From Chloroflexota bacterium (lineage in GTDB: Bacteria > Chloroflexota > Anaerolineae > Anaerolineales > Villigracilaceae), in contig JACRLC010000039.1 in NCBI GenBank assembly GCA_016235425.1, positions 1-64,000 on the forward strand: a stretch of 64,000 nt of DNA. The letters are read 5' to 3'. The notes under the pieces are model-generated. The model saw only the letters and a list, made by a program, of their open reading frames with translations. It was not told the DNA's origin and searched no databases. Below are positions 104 through 8,481 of the stretch, in pieces (position 1 is the first letter of the stretch; each line of letters begins with the position of its first letter). The position numbers and the translations under genes were made by a program.

Positions 104-316
104 CTCATTTACATCATCTTTCTTGCCTTAAGCTTACTAATTGATCCGAATGGTTCTTGCGAAATAAAACTGCTTGCTTCAGATTATTTACTTCCTCCCA
201 CATGGTCACCAGATGGAAACTCTCTCGCCTATATTGAACCGAATGCTAATGGAATATTCGCTGCAAATATTCAGGAATTATTAACGAGAAATAATCTAAA
301 CGATCTGTGTCAATAA
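104..316 (+). pseudogene. C-terminal fragment of a beta-propeller (PD40/TolB-like) protein
   Basis: This frame is open from a stop at 101-103 to the TAA at 314-316 and has no credible start. It contains the blade motif WSPDGNSLAYIEP, typical of PD40/TolB and WD40-like propellers, then ends NDLCQ. It looks like the last blade of a larger gene whose 5' part is lost. It sits just before an RHS fragment, as the intact propeller gene at 3298 sits just before the next RHS remnant. The link between the two is inference. Confidence 0.45.
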
Positions 317-459: not shown

Positions 460-1012
460 GGCTCAACGCGCGTCGCCATGCGAAAGAATGGAGCGTTGTA
501 TTTCCTGCTTTCTGATCATTCGGGTTCTACCAGCCTGACCACCAATGCCAGCGGCAATGTCATTTCGGAATTGAGATATACCGCCTGGGGCGAAGTCCGC
601 TACAATTCGGGGGTGACGCCCACGCAATATCAATTCACCGGGCAGATGAGCTACACCGAATCCTTCGGTCTCATGTACTACGGCGCACGCTGGTATGACC
701 CTTATCTTAACCGCTTTGCCCAGGCGGATTCGATTGTCCCTGACGGGGTGCAGGGATATGACAGGTACGCGTACGTCAACAATTCGCCGATGAAATACAT
801 TGATCCGTCAGGACATAATCCATGCCGTGGGGCGGAGAGTGGGTATAAGTGCCATAGAGACTTAGATAAGGCAACAAAGGGAGCGGCGCAAACAAGCAAC
901 TGCACTCTAACTAGCATACCTGACTATTGTATACTTAACAACGGAGCTGTGATTGACAAAAGTCACTTTAACACAAATAGTGCGGGAGCAGTTTGGGACA
1001 GTATATTAAGAG
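460..1012 (+). pseudogene. RHS core C-terminal fragment with start of variable tail, interrupted by an IS
   Basis: The frame encodes the end of an RHS repeat-associated core: GSTRVAMR, LLSDHSGSTSLTT, YYGARWYDPYLNRF and ending YIDPSGH near 811. This is the usual boundary between conserved core and variable C-terminal tail. Homology begins abruptly at about 460, so the large N-terminal part is missing. After the core the tail is cysteine-bearing and AT-richer (CRGAESGYKCHRD, then VIDKSHFNT) and is not a family I recognise. An insertion sequence enters at 1013 and supplies a premature stop at 1024-1026. The rest of the tail continues in frame at 2796. Orphan core-tail modules of this kind are common in polymorphic toxin loci. 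Confidence 0.75.
1005..1012. repeat. Target site duplication, left copy (attaagag)
   Basis: The 8-bp sequence attaagag directly precedes the left inverted repeat and recurs directly after the right one at 2788-2795. Confidence 0.9.
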
Positions 1013-1032
1013 GCAATACCGCATAACTTGCT
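1013..1032. repeat. Left terminal inverted repeat of the IS
   Basis: Twenty bases that match the reverse complement of 2768-2787 at 19 of 20 positions. Codons of the host RHS frame run into it and stop at 1024-1026. Confidence 0.9.
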
Positions 1033-1093
1033 ATTGATTTGAAGAAAAAGGGGTCTCATGGCAAATTAGACCTTCCACGACGAAGGAGCAGCC

Positions 1094-2764
1094 ATGAGAA
1101 CCCAGCGAGAATTGTACTCGGAAAAGAAAATTGTGTATGAGAGTGAATGGGATGAATGTACCCAGTGTGGACAGCCACTGACGAGTGTCTACACCAGTGG
1201 ATGGAAAACCGTGCAAACCATGAGTGAAGTGATCACAATCGCCCAACGTCCGAAATGTTGTATGAATGCAGAATGTCTTGGGAGGAACAAATTGTTGAGG
1301 TCGGTGCGCTGGCAACAAGTTGCGCCGATATGGTGTACATATGGATACGATGTGATTGCCCAAATTGGATGGCAGCGACAAATACAGCGGCAAACGTTTA
1401 GTGAAACACATCTTGACCTGCAAGGGCGGGTGCGCCTCAGCGAAACCCAAGTGCGGGCGCTTTATAACTATCGTTATTTACCCTTGCTGGCCTGTCATGA
1501 GCGACAACAAATGGAACGGTTGAAAACGATAGCCGTCCAGGGAGGGCTATGGTTATCTCTGGATGGATTAGCGCCTGAAGGAGGCGAAGCCCAATTATGG
1601 TTAGTACGAGAGTTGCAAAGCGAGGTCACGTTGCGCTGTGGCTGGATGAGCCAGCAAGATCAATCGGCTTTTGCGAATTTTCTGCAGCCAATTGCCGAGT
1701 TGGGATTGCCAGTAACGGTGGTGATGAGCGATAAACAGCGCGGCTTGGTGCCAGCGGTCGCCGAGGTCTTTTCGGGTGCGAAGCATTCTTTTTGCCAGAC
1801 GCATTATCTTGGCAATGCAGCGGAACCGATTAGTGAGGCAGACGAAGCCATGAAAATCGAACTGCGTCAAGGAGTGCGCCAAGAGGTTGGAACGCTGATT
1901 CGCCAGGAAAAGATTGAAAAACAAGGCGTTTTGACCGTCACGGGTGGGATTCCTTCGTCCGTGACACACCCAGAGGCGTCTCGTGACCCTGTGGTGCAAG
2001 AACAAGATGCCATTCTGCAGGACCTCTCTCGGCGTATCCGTTACCTGCTGACCTTGAAAGGACGCCCGCCTTTCTGTTTGGCGGGCATCGAAATGTTTGA
2101 GCGGCTGTCCGAAGTCAAAGACTGTCTGGAACGATTGATGGCTCATCACACACACCCTCAATTGGTGCAGTTGCAACAGGGGTTGTGCGCGGCTCTTCAA
2201 CTGGTTCAAACCAATTACATGCTCCTGCGCCAAGCAGCCGATTGGCTGGAACAGATTGCGGACTTGTTGGACCCGGCGGGAAAGTCGGTTCGTTCCGCAG
2301 CGCAGGTTCGGAAATCTTTGTTCGCATTCTTGAAGAAAATCAAAACCATCAGCAACCAACAACCCGGCTTACAACCTTTCGCTCAAACCATCCAGAAAAC
2401 CACCCTCAGCTATGCCCCTGGACTATTTCATTGCTACGACATCCCAGGCTTGCCTCGCACCAACAACGCCCGAGAAAGCGACTTCCGCGATCTCAACCGA
2501 CGCCTCTTGCGTACGACTGGCCAAAAGGGATTGCTCCGTCGCATCATTCAACGCAGCGGCGCCTGGGAATTGCTCCATCGTCCTGCTTCTTTGCAAGACA
2601 CAATTCTGGCTTTCAACCGCGTTGCCCCCCAGGATTTCCATGAAGAGCGACAACGTCTTCGCCAACATCGTGATCGTTTCAGACTGCATACCCGTTCCGC
2701 AAAACAGTCGCACCTTCAACTTGCCAAGTTGGAGCAACGCTGGGCAAATCTCGCGCCTATCTAA
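1094..2764 (+). CDS. Transposase, DDE type (MULE-like), 556 aa
   Basis: This is the transposase of the surrounding IS. The N-terminal part has paired cysteines (CTQCG near residue 22, CCMNAEC near 55), which suggests a zinc-binding DNA-recognition module. A plausible catalytic triad is D157 (LSLDGL), D213 (VMSDKQRG) and E461 (NNARESDFRDLNRR). The second and third motifs resemble the MULE/IS256/ISL3 pattern, with the FCQTHYLGN stretch after the second Asp. Between them lies a long helical, Gln/Arg-rich insertion. The gene is complete and starts ATG with GGAG about 6 bp upstream. Family assignment is uncertain, but the transposase role is well supported by the flanking inverted repeats. Confidence 0.88.
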   Translation: MRTQRELYSEKKIVYESEWDECTQCGQPLTSVYTSGWKTVQTMSEVITIAQRPKCCMNAECLGRNKLLRSVRWQQVAPIWCTYGYDVIAQIGWQRQIQRQTFSETHLDLQGRVRLSETQVRALYNYRYLPLLACHERQQMERLKTIAVQGGLWLSLDGLAPEGGEAQLWLVRELQSEVTLRCGWMSQQDQSAFANFLQPIAELGLPVTVVMSDKQRGLVPAVAEVFSGAKHSFCQTHYLGNAAEPISEADEAMKIELRQGVRQEVGTLIRQEKIEKQGVLTVTGGIPSSVTHPEASRDPVVQEQDAILQDLSRRIRYLLTLKGRPPFCLAGIEMFERLSEVKDCLERLMAHHTHPQLVQLQQGLCAALQLVQTNYMLLRQAADWLEQIADLLDPAGKSVRSAAQVRKSLFAFLKKIKTISNQQPGLQPFAQTIQKTTLSYAPGLFHCYDIPGLPRTNNARESDFRDLNRRLLRTTGQKGLLRRIIQRSGAWELLHRPASLQDTILAFNRVAPQDFHEERQRLRQHRDRFRLHTRSAKQSHLQLAKLEQRWANLAPI

Positions 2765-2767
2765 TCG

Positions 2768-2787
2768 AGCAAGTTATGCGGTACTGC
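2768..2787. repeat. Right terminal inverted repeat of the IS
   Basis: Reverse complement of 1013-1032 with one mismatch. It begins 3 bp after the transposase stop codon. Confidence 0.9.
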
Positions 2788-2795
2788 ATTAAGAG
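2788..2795. repeat. Target site duplication, right copy (attaagag)
   Basis: Identical to 1005-1012 and directly adjoining the right inverted repeat. Confidence 0.9.
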
Positions 2796-3301
2796 CATTC
2801 GAAAAGGGAGGAGCGGTAATACTTTTTCTGGGCCAACCATGGGCAGGCAGTTCCGAGTCTGATGGCAAGTTTATTTTCAAATACACAATTTACGGGGAAA
2901 ACCTTCAGGGAATGACGCCAGAACAACTGGCAGGAGTGGGATTAGGGCTTTGGCTTGACTTTCAGCGTAGATTTGAGGCTTGGCAATATGAGACAAAAGC
3001 TGTCTGGAGTCCATCTTCAGCTTCCAGGGCAGAAGATATTCCCAGCACGTATCTGGCTTATGTCAGTGAAGTGAGCGAAAAGAGTTACGAACAAATCGTA
3101 ACAGGTTTCGGAGGAGGAGGTCATGAATCATTATCCAGTTCCGCTCCAGGTGTTCAAAATGCAATGCAATGGTTTCTTGTGCCCCGCGCTGGCGCAAACT
3201 CAGGCGAAAGCGCTGTTCAGTACCTTGCCTATCCCAACAGTTATTTGAATATTACGCCTATCCTGAATAACGGTTATTGGGCTGATAAAGGTGTGCAATG
3301 A
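2796..3301 (+). pseudogene. Second half of the RHS variable tail, separated by the IS
   Basis: Joining 1012 to 2796 (dropping the IS and one duplication copy) keeps the reading frame: the tail runs AVWDSILR then AFEKGGAVILFLGQPW and on to the TGA at 3299-3301, with no stop between. An internal ATG at 2912 with no ribosome site is probably not a real start. The segment contains LGLWLDFQRRFEAWQYE and the tail ends NNGYWADKGVQ. I do not recognise the domain. By position it is the candidate effector domain of the RHS protein. Its stop overlaps the start of the next gene (ATGA at 3298-3301), as expected of a translationally coupled partner. The IS has disabled it as a continuous product. Confidence 0.7.
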
Positions 3302-4557
3302 ACAAGTCCTCGAAAATATACGCTTACATTTTCGGCGCCCTTTTGCTGGTCATCATGATTTGTCTTGTTTGGGCAGGGATTCGGGCCTTACAGAGAAATT
3401 CATTATTCAAGCCGACCCTGCTGGCTGCACAGATTCACTTTCCCTACGATTTAGGTATTCCGCTTCAGAAAATGACCGTACAAAACATTGAATCTCTTGC
3501 AGAAGTTCGCCAATTTTCCGATAAAGAAAAAAGCGGCATGTTGCGGATATCCTTGCCGCACGATGAACGCTACTTGCAGGCTGTCACTCAAGACGGTTCT
3601 TTAATAACCTGGGACATTGCTAAAGGGGATGAAATTGCGCGGCATGAAGTTGGCGCGGTGCATGTCGCTGCCGTCAGCTTTAGCGCCGATGGCAGAAGGC
3701 TCTCAACCCCTTATAATGTCACAAGTGACGGAAGGATTTCCGGGGTCGTCGTGTGGGACACTAAAACGGGGGTGATCATATTCTGCAACGGCGTAAAAGA
3801 GCGCTGTCCTGAAAAAAACCTGATGGGTAGCGCCATATTAGGCGAAACAATAGATGGCGTCTTCCTGGATGCAACTGGGGAGTGGCTAGTTGAATATTAT
3901 ATTAGGAGATCCACCAACTCAACAGACGCACCTAGATGGCCTTCCTACAGGCCTTCATATTATGAGATATATGGCGTTAGCAAATACTATGATGAAGGTA
4001 CTTTTACGGGCGCTGAAGATCTTAATTACGACCCACCCAAGTATTCCAAAGACCCAAATGCGGAAGTCGTTGCAATAACGACTGACATCGAGGCAAAATA
4101 CATTGCGTTTGCCTATGCCAACGGGGTTGTCCGTTTTCGCTCATTGTATGACATTACGGATTACCAAACGCAGAATTACACATTAGACTATGAACAGGCT
4201 CTGGGAACAGAGAGAATCAGCGTCGTTGAAATGAAAATGGATAATACGCGCACATGGCTTGCGGTCTTGAATAACAAGGAACTATTGGTATGGAATTTGC
4301 AGCGCGGGAAGGTCCTTCCGCTGGCAATACGCAAACCGGCTAGTAATGGAGTAGCATTATCATTTGACCAGACGGGAAACTTGTTAGCGGTTGCCAGACG
4401 AGATGAAATATTGTTCTACGATCTTCGTGCTGGAAAACAAGTCTGGTCAATGAACGCAAAAGGGGTAACATCCCTGATTATTTCCCCTGATAACCGCTTT
4501 TTGGTTTGGGGAGATACAGAAGGAAATCTTCATCTATGGGGCATTTCCGAGAAGTGA
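3298..4557 (+). CDS. Membrane-anchored WD40-like beta-propeller protein, 419 aa
   Basis: One hydrophobic segment at about residues 8-30 (IYAYIFGALLLVIMICLVW) anchors the protein, with the bulk probably outside the membrane. The rest shows repeated propeller blades: GSLITWDIAKG, VVVWDTKTG, ELLVWNLQRG, EILFYDLRAG and a final LHLWGISEK. There is no enzymatic motif. The ATG overlaps the stop of the RHS tail by 4 bp, so the two are probably co-translated. That coupling makes it a candidate immunity or accessory protein for the tail, but propellers are generic binding scaffolds and the role is inference. Base composition is AT-richer than in the sugar cluster that follows. Confidence 0.7.
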   Translation: MNKSSKIYAYIFGALLLVIMICLVWAGIRALQRNSLFKPTLLAAQIHFPYDLGIPLQKMTVQNIESLAEVRQFSDKEKSGMLRISLPHDERYLQAVTQDGSLITWDIAKGDEIARHEVGAVHVAAVSFSADGRRLSTPYNVTSDGRISGVVVWDTKTGVIIFCNGVKERCPEKNLMGSAILGETIDGVFLDATGEWLVEYYIRRSTNSTDAPRWPSYRPSYYEIYGVSKYYDEGTFTGAEDLNYDPPKYSKDPNAEVVAITTDIEAKYIAFAYANGVVRFRSLYDITDYQTQNYTLDYEQALGTERISVVEMKMDNTRTWLAVLNNKELLVWNLQRGKVLPLAIRKPASNGVALSFDQTGNLLAVARRDEILFYDLRAGKQVWSMNAKGVTSLIISPDNRFLVWGDTEGNLHLWGISEK

Positions 4558-4560
4558 ACC

Positions 4561-4809
4561 TTAGTTATTGGCGACGGCAAACGCGTGGCGGCCATCAATA
4601 ATGTCAACAACGTGACCACCTACTTCGTCGGCAACTACTACGAAGTGACCGGAAGCACCGTCACCAAGTATTACTATGCCGGGAGTCAACGCGTCGCCAT
4701 GCGAACTTACGACACTTCTACACCCGGCACTTCGACACTGAATTTCCTGCTCTCCGACCATCTCGGAAGCACAAGCATAACCACCGATTCAAGCGGCAAC
4801 GTCATTCAG
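4561..4809 (+). pseudogene. RHS core remnant
   Basis: The frame, starting 3 bp after the propeller gene stop, encodes GDGKRVAAI, TTYFVGNYYEV, KYYYAGSQRVAMR and LLSDHLGSTSITTDSSGN. This is the RHS stretch just upstream of the hypervariable junction. Homology stops at about 4809, and the frame then runs into a LacI promoter. There is no start, no tail and no RHS N-terminus. A second remnant covering the same RHS stretch lies at 19228-19440, beyond the sugar cluster. Confidence 0.75.
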
Positions 4810-4840: not shown

Positions 4841-4869
4841 TTGACTCTTGTTCTTTTTTTCGCTATACT
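4841..4869 (+). promoter_or_regulatory. Sigma-70-type promoter of the LacI gene
   Basis: A -35 box TTGACT (4841-4846) and a -10 box TATACT (4864-4869) are spaced by exactly 17 bp. Predicted initiation is near 4876, inside the operator palindrome at 4871-4884 and 26 bp before the gene's ATG. Confidence 0.75.
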
Positions 4870-4870
4870 A

Positions 4871-4884
4871 TGTAAGCGCTTACA
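4871..4884. promoter_or_regulatory. LacI-family operator (tgtaagcgcttaca)
   Basis: A perfect 14-bp palindrome with the central CG typical of LacI/GalR operators lies directly downstream of the -10 box. An imperfect second site follows at 4884-4897 (11 of 14 positions match). Occupancy would block initiation, so autorepression by the LacI protein encoded 18 bp further on is the simplest reading. Confidence 0.75.
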
Positions 4885-4901
4885 GAAAGCGTTTACATAA
4901 A

Positions 4902-5939
4902 ATGGCTAATCTTTCTCCCACAATTGCAGATGTTGCCCGGCACGCTAGGGTATCCATTGCCACGGTAAGCCGGGTGGTAAATGGGACAGGGCCGGTCATT
5001 CCGCAGACGGCGGAGCGCGTGCGGGCGGCGATTGACGAGTTGCATTATGTGCCGCGCACGGCGGCGCGCGTGCTGGCGAGCAGAAAAACAAACACGCTTG
5101 GACTGCTCCTGCCGGAGATTGGCGGCGCGTTTTTCTCGCCGCTCTTGCGAGGCATCGAAGCGGAGGCGCAGGCCGCGGGGTTCGACCTGCTCATCCATGC
5201 CACGAGCCACATCCCTCATGCGTCTTCGCCCGTCCCGCATCGTCCGCTGGGGATGCACAATACCGACGGTTTGATCGTCTTCACGCAGAGCATTGACGAT
5301 GCCGAGATGACGCGGCTCTCTGCCATCAACTTTCCCTTTATCCTGATTTACCAGACCCCTCCCCCTTCGCTGAACGTCCCGTCCATTACGATCGAGAACA
5401 AGTCCGGCGCGCAGAAGATCGTGGAGCATCTCATCGATGCTCACAACTGCCGCCGGATCGTTTTTTTGCGCGGCCCCGAAGGCAACGAGGACTCGGAATG
5501 GCGCGAGCGCGGTTACCGCGCCGCATTGGAGGCGCACGGCATCGCGTACGATCCAACGCTGACTGCCATCGGCGGCTTCAATGAAGAGCAGGCGCATTCC
5601 GCCATCCGTCAAATGCTCGCGGACGGGATCGAGTTCGATGCGGTCTTCGGCGGCGACGATGACACTGCCGTGGGCGTGATCTCCGCGTTGCGCCGCGCCG
5701 GCAGGCGCGTCCCGCAGGATGTGGCGGTGGCGGGCTTCGACGATATCCCAATCGCCCGTTATCTCACACCTGCGCTGACGACCGTGAGCGCTCCGATTGA
5801 GCAGGTGGGGCGCGAAGCTGTCGGGCAGTTGGTCCGATTGATACGCGGCGAGCAGGCCGAGGGTCAGGTTTTGATGCGAACGGAGTTGGTCGTCCGCGAA
5901 TCGTGCGGGTGTCTGTCTTCCTCACAAAGTCCGACATAA
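4902..5939 (+). CDS. LacI family transcriptional regulator, 345 aa
   Basis: A cytoplasmic repressor with an N-terminal LacI helix-turn-helix (TIADVARHARVSIATVSRVVNG, about residues 6-27) and a periplasmic-binding-protein-like sensor domain. The sensor includes LGLLLPEIGGAFFSPLLRGI and the conserved end VAVAGFDDIPIARYLTPALTTV. The ATG at 4902 places the HTH at the terminus as in the family. An upstream in-frame start at 4848 would lie within the promoter and is rejected. The operator at 4871-4884 suggests autoregulation, and the following genes make it the likely regulator of the ABC/GH1/GH4 cluster. The effector is probably a sugar from that pathway. Confidence 0.92.
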   Translation: MANLSPTIADVARHARVSIATVSRVVNGTGPVIPQTAERVRAAIDELHYVPRTAARVLASRKTNTLGLLLPEIGGAFFSPLLRGIEAEAQAAGFDLLIHATSHIPHASSPVPHRPLGMHNTDGLIVFTQSIDDAEMTRLSAINFPFILIYQTPPPSLNVPSITIENKSGAQKIVEHLIDAHNCRRIVFLRGPEGNEDSEWRERGYRAALEAHGIAYDPTLTAIGGFNEEQAHSAIRQMLADGIEFDAVFGGDDDTAVGVISALRRAGRRVPQDVAVAGFDDIPIARYLTPALTTVSAPIEQVGREAVGQLVRLIRGEQAEGQVLMRTELVVRESCGCLSSSQSPT

Positions 5940-6019
5940 ATTAATCGCAAGGAGGTGAACGGAGAGAATTTGTTCAGAGTGTTCGTTTATCCATTCCGAT
6001 ACCATTTCTGGAGGAGAAA

Positions 6020-7318
6020 ATGACAAAGCTTCTGTTCAAACTGTTGACTCTGCTGGCGCTGGCATCCATGGTGCTGGCCGCCTGCGGCGGACAGTCACAG
6101 GCCCCTGAAACGAAAACCCTGCGTGTGTGGATCCAGTGGGGCGACAACCCGCAACAGATCCAGACGCTGTTCGATAAATACACCGCGGAGACCGGCATCA
6201 AAGTGGAAGTGACCGCTCCGCTGGAAACCGACAAAATCCTTCCGGCGCTCACCGGCTCCGAACCGCCCGATGTGCTTGTGTTGAGCGGCGGCGACCTGGT
6301 CAAATCGTATTACAAGGAAGGGTTGGTGGACGAATTGACTGGCGCAATTCAAGCCGGCGGCATTGACTTGAACGATTTCTTTGAAGCCCCGCTGGACCAG
6401 TGCAAGATGGATGGCAAAACCCTGTGCCTGCCCTGGGGAACGGACATGTACGCGCTGTTCTGGAACAGGGATCTGTTCGAAGCCGCGGGCCTCGATCCTG
6501 AAACACCGCCCGCCACCATGGAAGAACTGGCCGAATTCGCTGATAAGCTGACCAAAGTCGCGCCCGATGGAACGATTGAACAAATCGGATTCCTGCCGGA
6601 CCAGGCATGGGGTCACAGCGATTTGTACATCCAGCAATTTGGCGGATTCTGGTACAACGAAGACGGGACCAAGATAACCGTCAATAGCCAGCCCGTGATT
6701 GACGCCATGCTGTGGCAACAGCAGTTCTATACCAAATATGGCGTGGACAATGTGATGGCATTCTCGTCCGGCTGGGCCGATGCTTACATGTCCGCGGATT
6801 ATCCCTTCTACACCGGCAAACTCGCCATGTACGTGGACGGCGAATGGATGACCGGCCCGAACTTCATCAGCGCCTTCAAGCCTGAGGCGAGTTACGGCGT
6901 TGCGCCCTTCCCGCCCCCAGCCGACCACCCGGAACGCGCGAATACCGCCGTCGTTCAAGGCACAGTCGCTGTGATCCCAAGCGGCGCGGCGGATAAAGAG
7001 GCCTCTGCCAAACTACTGGCATGGATGATGTCGCCTGCCATTGTGGCGGAGGAATTCTGCTTCAACGCCAACCTGCCCACCAGCAAGAAGGCCGCCGCAG
7101 ACCCCTGCTTCACTGAAAACCCCAAGTTCAAGGTCTTTACGGATCTCATATCCAGCCCCAATGCAAAAATCATCGTCACTACTCCAATCTCGCTGGAGTT
7201 CAACGATGCCTGGGCATTGGTGGAAGAGCAGGTATTGCACACCGGCGCCGATCCAAAACCTTTGTTGGATCAACTTCAAGCCGATTTCGAACCAAAACTG
7301 GCGGACGCGCTCAAGTAA
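6020..7318 (+). CDS. Carbohydrate ABC transporter substrate-binding lipoprotein (family 1), 432 aa
   Basis: The solute receptor of a CUT1-type sugar importer. It has a lipoprotein signal (KLLFKLLTLLALASMVLAAC, lipobox LAAC) followed by a mature protein with features of family 1 binding proteins: TLRVWIQWGDNP, a hinge near LPWGTDMYALFWNRDLFEAAGLD, and an aromatic-rich binding region (GGFWYNEDGT, VDGEWMTGPN). The ribosome site GGAGGAG is 6 bp before the ATG. The two permeases follow at 7534 and 8486. No ATPase is encoded nearby, so a shared MsmX/UgpC-type ATPase elsewhere must energise the system. Substrate is inferred only from the neighbouring glycosidases. Confidence 0.92.
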   Translation: MTKLLFKLLTLLALASMVLAACGGQSQAPETKTLRVWIQWGDNPQQIQTLFDKYTAETGIKVEVTAPLETDKILPALTGSEPPDVLVLSGGDLVKSYYKEGLVDELTGAIQAGGIDLNDFFEAPLDQCKMDGKTLCLPWGTDMYALFWNRDLFEAAGLDPETPPATMEELAEFADKLTKVAPDGTIEQIGFLPDQAWGHSDLYIQQFGGFWYNEDGTKITVNSQPVIDAMLWQQQFYTKYGVDNVMAFSSGWADAYMSADYPFYTGKLAMYVDGEWMTGPNFISAFKPEASYGVAPFPPPADHPERANTAVVQGTVAVIPSGAADKEASAKLLAWMMSPAIVAEEFCFNANLPTSKKAAADPCFTENPKFKVFTDLISSPNAKIIVTTPISLEFNDAWALVEEQVLHTGADPKPLLDQLQADFEPKLADALK

Positions 7319-7390
7319 AATTATTGAGCCTCTTGCATAGGAAATCTGCGCGAATGCTGTGCCAGTCGGCATCAAGCCGAACACTTCACT

Positions 7391-7449
7391 GAACCGCGGA
7401 GTCACCGGGAAAACCATAAAATCCCCGTGCCTCCGTGTCTCAGCGGTGA
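7391..7449. repeat. Dispersed intergenic inverted repeat (accgcgga... type)
   Basis: Between the binding protein and the permease (7319-7533) there is no gene. This element starts aaccgcggagtcac and ends ctccgtgtctcagcggtg, so its arms pair imperfectly. Similar elements, built on accgcgaag... and ...tttgcggtt arms, lie at 50385-50462 and 59632-59703. A further small hairpin (gagaat-ggca-attctc) lies just downstream. Such a structured spacer could lower permease expression relative to the binding protein; that is inference. Confidence 0.5.
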
Positions 7450-7533
7450 GTGGCGATGAGAATGGCAATTCTCGATAGCGCCTGCTAAATTTGAGAATCC
7501 AGGCCGGCATGAGAATTGCCCTGATGGAGGACG

Positions 7534-8481
7534 ATGATGTTGGAATTGCGACTCGGCAGGTGGAAACTTCCCCTGCCCCAATTTACCAAATGGGGACCAC
7601 GCGACCGCCTCAATTTCCGGACCGGAATGCTGTTCCTGCTTCCGTGGACGATCGGCTTTTTGGCATTTACCCTTTACCCGATGGTCATGTCCCTGATCTA
7701 CAGCTTCAGCATCTATCATTCCAAAGCGCCGCTCGAATGGAATGGAATAAAAAACTACGCCGACCTCCTCACCGACAACCTGTTCTGGACATCCCTCTTC
7801 AACACAGTCTATATGGTTGCAATCGGCGTGCCGCTGACTCTATTTGCATCGTTCTTCTGTGCGGTCCTGCTCAACTTGAAAGTGCGCGGACAGGCCCTCT
7901 ACCGCGTGGTTTACTTCCTGCCGTCCATCGTCCCGACCGTTGCCAGCACCATTCTCTGGTTATGGATCTTGAATCCGCAGGCGGGAATCCTGAACACAGT
8001 GCTTGGATATTTCGGCATTGACGGCCCAAATTGGATGACGAATCCGGCGTGGTCCAAACCGGGTCTTATTTTGCTCGGCATGTGGGGAATGGGGAACACG
8101 ATCATTATTTATCTCTCCGGCCTGCAGGACGTTTCCGTCAGCCTGCTCGAAGCCGCCGAGTTGGACGGAGCCAACTGGTGGCAAAGACTCTGGAACATCA
8201 CGGTCCCAATGGTCTCACCGATCACGCTGTTCAACTTGATCACGGGCGTGATCGCCATGTTCCAATATTTTGCCCAGGCTTATGTATTTCGCGGCTTCCA
8301 AAACCTGGGCTATCCTTTGAATTCGACGCTATTCTATAGTGTGCTTCTTTACCAGAACGCTTTTCAATGGTTGAAGATGGGCTACGCATCCGCGATGGCC
8401 TGGGTGCTTTTCATCATCATCCTCGTCTGCACGCTTCTCCTTCTAAAGGTCAGTGACCGCTTTACCTACTACGCAGGATAA
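7534..8481 (+). CDS. Sugar ABC transporter permease (MalF/UgpA-like), 315 aa
   Basis: The first inner-membrane subunit of the CUT1 importer. It has six or so hydrophobic segments, beginning GMLFLLPWTIGFLAFTLYPM, and the cytoplasmic EAA loop LLEAAELDGANWWQRLWNIT that docks the ATPase. The N-terminus carries a short positively charged cytoplasmic tail. Two adjacent ATGs (7534, 7537) follow GGAGG; either could be used. It overlaps no gene but ends 4 bp before the next start, showing tight coupling with the second permease. Confidence 0.92.
   Translation: MMLELRLGRWKLPLPQFTKWGPRDRLNFRTGMLFLLPWTIGFLAFTLYPMVMSLIYSFSIYHSKAPLEWNGIKNYADLLTDNLFWTSLFNTVYMVAIGVPLTLFASFFCAVLLNLKVRGQALYRVVYFLPSIVPTVASTILWLWILNPQAGILNTVLGYFGIDGPNWMTNPAWSKPGLILLGMWGMGNTIIIYLSGLQDVSVSLLEAAELDGANWWQRLWNITVPMVSPITLFNLITGVIAMFQYFAQAYVFRGFQNLGYPLNSTLFYSVLLYQNAFQWLKMGYASAMAWVLFIIILVCTLLLLKVSDRFTYYAG

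What the first reader, a model, noticed from the sequence alone, without database searches (positions are those of the whole stretch)
460..3301. Removing a complete IS restores an intact RHS tail
The 1,775-bp element has 20-bp inverted repeats and a perfect 8-bp duplication. Joining 1012 to 2796 gives an open frame from the RHS core to the TGA at 3299-3301. So an intact RHS-tail gene existed shortly before insertion, and its variable domain can be reconstructed.
Basis: seen in the sequence. Interest (0 to 1): 0.72.

Follow-up and report, generated by a model that had tools for sequence, protein, structure and literature searches.

The report
Jumping gene in spare toxin-tail cassette
A mobile element has landed in a spare Rhs tail cassette, a detached toxin-type gene end kept behind a main gene, and the cut tail belongs to an unnamed protein family that often travels with a propeller-shaped partner, perhaps its antidote.

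Summary
In detail: a 1,775-bp IS at 1013-2787, ends paired at 19 of 20 bases, a perfect 8-bp duplication and an intact IS256/Mutator-like transposase. The coding pieces beside it are in register by arithmetic; they were not joined. Two relatives carry the tail uninterrupted. What was hit is not an intact Rhs gene but an orphan cassette: about 119 residues of core, a tail and a partner gene. It probably lies fourth in an array behind a 2,346-aa Rhs gene on contig C35, since C35's right end and window 137-313 look like successive parts of one partner gene. The tail matched no family in the libraries scanned. Its profile hits 15 of 396 class genomes, 7 as Rhs tails and 8 as standalone proteins with a hydrophobic N-terminus. 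In 5 of 8 Rhs-borne copies, one more weakly, the next gene is an anchored beta-propeller; here it is the intact 3298-4557. Best reading: a disrupted orphan toxin cassette with a surviving candidate immunity gene acting outside the membrane. Toxicity and immunity are inferred, not tested. The IS is ordinary; the tail/propeller pair is the new part.

The parts
137..313 (+). C-terminal end of a TolB/PD40-type propeller protein, probably the partner gene of the preceding cassette, whose first part lies at the right end of contig C35
   Evidence: aligns to the last ~59 residues of homologues in G135, G058, G028 and G074 (4 of 5 loci), which align to the C35 gene with their earlier residues
460..816 (+). 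Rhs core stub, 119 residues, without the 5' part of an Rhs gene
   Evidence: TIGR03696 67.7 bits, cut-off 32.5; DNA 83% identical to the core of the full-length gene at 529-817
817..1012 (+). first part of the tail, with the ID..HF motif
   Evidence: translation; aligns to uninterrupted tails of G146 and G029
1005..1012 (.). target duplication, left copy
   Evidence: identical to 2788-2795
1013..1032 (+). left terminal inverted repeat of the IS
1094..2764 (+). transposase, 556 aa, IS256/Mutator-like
   Evidence: PF00872 28.9 bits against a cut-off of 21
2768..2787 (-). right terminal inverted repeat of the IS
2788..2795 (.). target duplication, right copy
2796..3301 (+). second part of the tail with its stop; holds the D.....E and EDIPS motifs
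   Evidence: translation; hhalign 98.8%, E 5.6e-17 against a profile of 12 homologues without window rows
3298..4557 (+). intact partner gene, 419 aa: N-terminal hydrophobic stretch, then WD40-type beta-propeller; candidate immunity protein
   Evidence: Pfam WD40 and related propeller models; homologues directly behind the tails of G146 and G029
4564..4806 (+). second Rhs core stub, without a tail; probable end of the array
   Evidence: DNA at 4570-4806 is 75% identical to the full-length gene's core

Best explanation
A complete IS256/Mutator-like element transposed into the tail of an orphan Rhs cassette (core stub + tail + partner gene) that probably lies fourth in an array behind a full-length Rhs gene of an Anaerolineae-type Chloroflexota genome. 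The insertion cuts an unnamed tail domain between its first conserved motif (ID..HF) and its other two, so this copy no longer encodes the whole domain, while the partner gene stays intact. Tail and partner most likely form a toxin/immunity-type pair: the tail would act at the cell envelope, and the anchored propeller would protect the producer outside the cytoplasmic membrane. Shown: the IS, the split, the missing 5' part, the tail family, the recurrent pairing. Strongly indicated: the place in the array. Inferred: toxicity, immunity, site of action.
For: Complete IS with perfect duplication. Uninterrupted relatives with the pieces aligning in order. Core stub only, with a full-length gene and further orphan cassettes on C35 and two parts of one partner gene at the two contig ends. 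In 5 of 8 Rhs-borne tails the next gene matches the propeller profile, in one more weakly; propeller and tail profiles share 5 genomes where 0.3 would be expected, p 2e-6 without correction for relatedness. Partners begin with a membrane anchor or a lipoprotein-like start, by eye. The order tail then partner is that of polymorphic toxin cassettes (PMC3482391, passages).
Against: No toxin family, solved sequence or fold matches the tail. G018 has a different next gene and G247 shows no propeller; three propeller-positive genomes (G408, G422, G460) show no tail in the stretch read; one of the 5 shared genomes (G251) has its strong propeller match on another contig. Eight standalone tail homologues have no propeller match in their flanks, so the domain need not be a toxin. 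The left 136 bases of the window are not the repeat found at C35's end, so the contig adjacency rests on the shared partner gene alone.
Confidence: 0.6

Rival explanations
1. The pair is not a toxin and its antidote: the tail is a surface or matrix module (for instance an envelope enzyme or binding domain) and the propeller a co-exported partner of it.
For: Eight of 15 tail-positive class genomes hold it as a standalone protein with a hydrophobic N-terminus and no propeller match nearby; no toxin family matches.
Against: Rhs-borne copies lie as short cassettes in arrays with a partner directly behind, the organisation of toxin/immunity pairs (PMC3482391); a neighbouring cassette on C94 is followed by a DUF4279 gene and one on C35 has a Stv-domain tail.
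Confidence: 0.27
2. One reading: a complete, working Rhs gene was inactivated recently by the IS.
For: Perfect duplication, intact transposase and undegraded flanks.
Against: Only 119 core residues precede the tail and the upstream sequence is not Rhs; the full-length Rhs gene of this genome is on C35 with its own tail.
Confidence: 0.06
3. The arrangement is an assembly artefact.
For: Draft of 109 contigs; a repeat with four places in the assembly lies at C35's right end.
Against: Perfect 8-bp duplication at complete ends, and one copy of the IS in the assembly, so no near-identical copy to misplace.
Confidence: 0.03

Closest known systems
Orphan Rhs toxin/immunity fragment of Salmonella Typhimurium LT2 (Koskiniemi et al. 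2014, PMC3967940; abstract and section list seen)
   Same: a gene fragment with core and toxin end behind a main rhs gene, lacking start and export signals, linked to a partner gene
   Different: another phylum, a tail of an unnamed family, a propeller as partner, and the tail is cut by an IS; activity untested here
Toxin/immunity cassettes of polymorphic toxin systems (Zhang et al. 2012, PMC3482391; passages seen)
   Same: tail first, partner second, cassettes near a full-length gene with SpvB and RHS repeats
   Different: the word WD40 does not occur in the held text, and the propeller passages shown name propellers as repeats of the secreted toxin or its export route, not as immunity proteins; not all passages were shown
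IS256 / Mutator-type insertion sequences
   Same: Transposase_mut domain above the Pfam cut-off, terminal repeats, 8-bp duplication (the duplication size usual for the family is recalled, not from a call)
   Different: 27.8 bits against an NCBIfam IS256 cut-off of 150, so a divergent group

Membership tests
Complete insertion sequence | terminal inverted repeats, target duplication, one intact transposase | tested here: met
IS256 family, NCBIfam equivalog NF033543 | score above the curated cut-off | tested here: not met
   27.8 bits against 150; Pfam PF00872 is met with 28.9 against 21
Orphan Rhs cassette | Rhs core stub joined to a tail | tested here: met
   TIGR03696 67.7 bits; tail shown by relatives
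Orphan Rhs cassette | 5' part of the Rhs gene missing | tested here: met
   no core match upstream of 460; the own-genome search lists 7 matches, none there
Orphan Rhs cassette | lies behind a full-length Rhs gene | tested here: inconclusive
   C35 and C23 each hold part of one partner gene, but the gap between the contigs is not sequenced and the window's left end is not C35's end repeat
Polymorphic toxin/immunity pair | tail followed directly by a conserved partner gene | tested here: met
   5 of 8 Rhs-borne copies by profile, one more weakly; exceptions G018 and G247
Polymorphic toxin/immunity pair | the tail is toxic and the partner neutralises it | not testable with these tools
   needs an experiment
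A curated family in Pfam, NCBIfam, PHROGs or PADLOC (tail) | match of the tail above cut-off | tested here: not met
   window right piece and homologues: Pfam; NCBIfam; PHROGs; PADLOC
A known solved fold (tail) | structural match of a predicted model | tested here: inconclusive
   standalone homologue, mean pLDDT 72.9; best Foldseek E 0.86; best VIA-align Z 4.1

The most novel reading that the evidence does not exclude
Anaerolineae-type Chloroflexota use surface-anchored beta-propellers as a general class of Rhs immunity protein that acts outside the cytoplasmic membrane, with at least two unrelated tail types: the ID..HF / D.....E / EDIPS domain described here, and an HExxH metallopeptidase-like tail. 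The first would be a new envelope-acting toxin family that also exists as standalone secreted proteins.
Probability: 0.4. Interest if true: 0.65.

Novelty: new member of a known kind. Interest (0 to 1): 0.42.

Why it matters
The IS insertion is routine. Following it exposed an Rhs locus with a row of spare cassettes in an uncultured environmental lineage, and an unnamed tail family linked to propeller genes in several bacterial families. If the pair is a toxin and its antidote, the anchored propeller points to an envelope target and to a class of immunity protein that I did not meet in the searches made (two of the papers listed were looked into). The window copy is a natural case in which the tail is disrupted and the partner kept.

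Tried and rejected
Tail against family libraries and PDB sequences: nothing above a curated cut-off; best PDB sequence E 0.99. Predicted model of a standalone homologue against PDB structures: no convincing match; this does not show that the fold is new. Close relatives of the right piece in genome contigs: 46 stretches matched a pattern, none confirmed. Phylum sample with A3: 4 of 400 genomes (G000, G018, G029, G247), no new ones. Dating the IS by comparing copies: not possible, one DNA copy in the assembly (the protein search adds only a distant relative, 29-31% identical, at C72). Terminal repeats of related elements: similar ends (1-5 mismatches of 20) in all 6 loci examined from other genomes and none in the distant own-genome locus L062; the two loci with both ends in view (L054, L056) showed no duplicated target by eye. 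Idea that the stub at 4564-4806 is the other half of the same core: rejected, because its part of the core overlaps that of the first stub. Assembly artefact: unlikely (rivals). Literature searches with no paper holding all terms; one search lists 15 of 17 papers, of which I looked at passages of two (PMC3482391, PMC13018210).

Full report
What is there. The window is the left end of contig C23 in a 5.0-Mb draft genome of 109 contigs. At 1013-2787 lies a complete insertion sequence: 1,775 bp, terminal repeats 1013-1032 / 2768-2787 with 19 of 20 bases paired, and an identical 8-bp duplication at 1005-1012 and 2788-2795. It carries one intact 556-aa transposase (1094-2764) that passes the Pfam Transposase_mut cut-off (28.9 bits against 21) but not the NCBIfam IS256 cut-off (27.8 against 150). 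A DNA search finds one copy in the assembly. Related transposases occur in 6 other genomes of the 101 searched, with a distant one (29-31%) at C72 of this genome; the 6 loci examined from other genomes have similar terminal repeats.

The broken coding region. Left of the element, 460-816 encodes the last 119 residues of an Rhs core (TIGR03696, 67.7 bits) and 817-1012 the beginning of a tail; right of it, 2796-3301 encodes the rest with its stop. The right piece stays open in its frame in 1 of 20,000 base shuffles, and the two frames are in register by arithmetic. That this was one continuous domain is shown by relatives: G146 (287-aa ORF) and G029 (544-aa ORF), in other genera of the same family, carry the tail uninterrupted, with the left piece aligning to the first part of their tails and the right piece to the later part. 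Against A3, a profile of 12 homologues without window rows, the right piece gives 98.8% probability and E 5.6e-17, and its second residue already aligns.

Not an intact gene. Upstream of 460 no Rhs core match is found. Window 137-313 encodes the C-terminal end of a TolB/PD40-type propeller protein: in 4 of 5 loci of homologues (G135, G058, G028, G074) it aligns to their last ~59 residues, while their earlier residues (up to 255-290) align to a gene cut off at the right end of contig C35. C35 ends in a repeat that has four places in the assembly. So C35 and C23 are probably neighbours with an element between them; against this, the first bases of the window are not that repeat, so the link rests on the shared gene. 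C35 carries a 2,346-aa Rhs gene (C35:35868-42908) with SpvB, RHS repeats and SLH, then an orphan cassette with a Stv-domain tail (PF21527, 79.8 bits), then an orphan with an HExxH tail and the cut-off propeller partner. The window's tail would be the fourth, counting the main gene's own, and a tail-less core stub at 4564-4806 would end the array before a LacI-type regulator and a sugar-binding protein. The window core is 83% identical in DNA to the main core (529-817) and 92% to the HExxH cassette (702-863), the latter running 47 bases past the core boundary. Another orphan-like cassette sits on C94, followed by a DUF4279 gene.

The tail family. Profile A1 (two relatives plus the two window pieces as separate rows) finds 15 of 396 class genomes at E <= 0.001. 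Reading the ORFs: 7 are Rhs-borne (G000, G018, G029, G220, G247, G251, G377) and 8 are standalone proteins with an N-terminal hydrophobic segment by eye (G314, G373, G393, G424, G490, G495, G507, G515). G146, from the family search (3 of 152 genomes), is an eighth Rhs-borne copy. A phylum sample with A3 gave 4 of 400, no new ones. Thirteen named Chloroflexota contigs, titled Anaerolineae, Anaerolinea, Anaerolineaceae, Caldilineales, Caldilineaceae or simply Chloroflexi/Chloroflexota, hold the standalone form; one matches the query row from G507 at 100%, from which I infer the window's class. In A3 the invariant columns are H13, Y54, D75, E81, D102 and P104, with D10 and E101 in at least 90%. 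The window keeps D and H (IDKSHF) in its left piece and Y, D, E, E, D, P in its right piece. No library matches the tail above cut-off. A model of a standalone member (13-row alignment, mean pLDDT 72.9, with segments under 50) has no convincing PDB neighbour.

The partner. The gene at 3298-4557 overlaps the tail's stop and is intact: an N-terminal hydrophobic stretch and a WD40-type propeller. G146 and G029 have its homologue 3 and 33 nt behind their tails. Among 8 Rhs-borne copies the next gene matches the propeller profile A2 in 5: G000, G146 and G029, from which A2 was built, and G220 and G377, which are independent of it. In G251 the next gene is only weakly similar (hhalign 57.6%, E 1e-4, no Pfam hit). 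In G018 it is another open frame of 151 residues without a Pfam match, and in G247 no propeller match was found. None of the 8 standalone copies had a propeller match in the flanks held. Searched on its own, A2 finds 8 of 392 class genomes at E <= 1e-10; 5 of them (G000, G029, G220, G251, G377) are also tail-positive, hypergeometric p 2e-6, which ignores relatedness, includes two genomes the profiles were built from, treats two nearly equal samples as one and counts G251, whose strong match is on another contig. G422, G460 and G408 showed no tail in the stretch read. By eye the partners of G220, G377 and G251 begin like lipoproteins and those of G000, G146 and G029 like membrane-anchored proteins (the lipoprotein rule is recalled). 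A second tail type behaves alike: of the 5 loci of relatives of the C35 propeller, 3 (G058, G074, G135) lie behind an ORF with an Rhs-core motif and HExxH, and 2 (G053, G028) do not.

Reading. Orphan tails with a linked partner behind a main rhs gene are known from Salmonella, where the fragment lacks start and export signals (PMC3967940, abstract), and cassettes in toxin-immunity order are described for polymorphic toxin systems (PMC3482391, passages). The window fits that organisation. The IS therefore probably hit a silent spare part rather than a working gene, and the partner is kept. I infer that the tail acts at the envelope, because the standalone forms and the partners both carry export or anchor signals. 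Neither toxicity nor immunity was tested.

Novelty. In the searches made I met no description of propeller immunity proteins for Rhs tails or of Rhs cassettes in Anaerolineae; the library holds only openly licensed papers, and of the 17 papers I looked at passages of two. The insertion is ordinary; the tail/propeller pair is a new candidate member of the polymorphic-toxin kind.

Noticed in passing
L012 1869-8909 (C35:35868-42908): The full-length Rhs gene carries S-layer homology (SLH) sequence inside the protein, between the RHS repeats and the core (Pfam SLH, best stretch 1767-1809), with DNA similar to the SLH part of the ORF just upstream (67.8% over 391 bases).
   Followed up: no
L012 12508-13407 and 13427-14086; L067, L069, L070: A second pair: an Rhs tail with an HExxH motif followed by a PD40-type propeller with a lipoprotein-like start, seen on C35 and in 3 of 5 loci of relatives.
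   Followed up: partly
L014 (G146) and L015 (G029): Both relatives hold rows of short Rhs-core-plus-tail ORFs, each followed by another small gene, so arrays of cassettes are not peculiar to this genome.
   Followed up: partly
L012 14250-14391; C106, C76, C21: A repeat at the right end of C35, cutting the propeller gene, has four places in the assembly, each at or near a stretch end; its element was not identified.
   Followed up: partly
L013 5240-6736 (C94): Another orphan-like Rhs cassette without a Pfam match in its tail, followed by a DUF4279 gene (78.8 bits).
   Followed up: no
window 4848-8481: A LacI-type regulator and a sugar-binding protein, followed by an ORF that looks by eye like an ABC permease, begin directly after the last core stub.
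   Followed up: no
L074 and L080 (G422 C23): Two related propeller genes in tandem without a tail in the stretch read, perhaps partners left behind.
   Followed up: no
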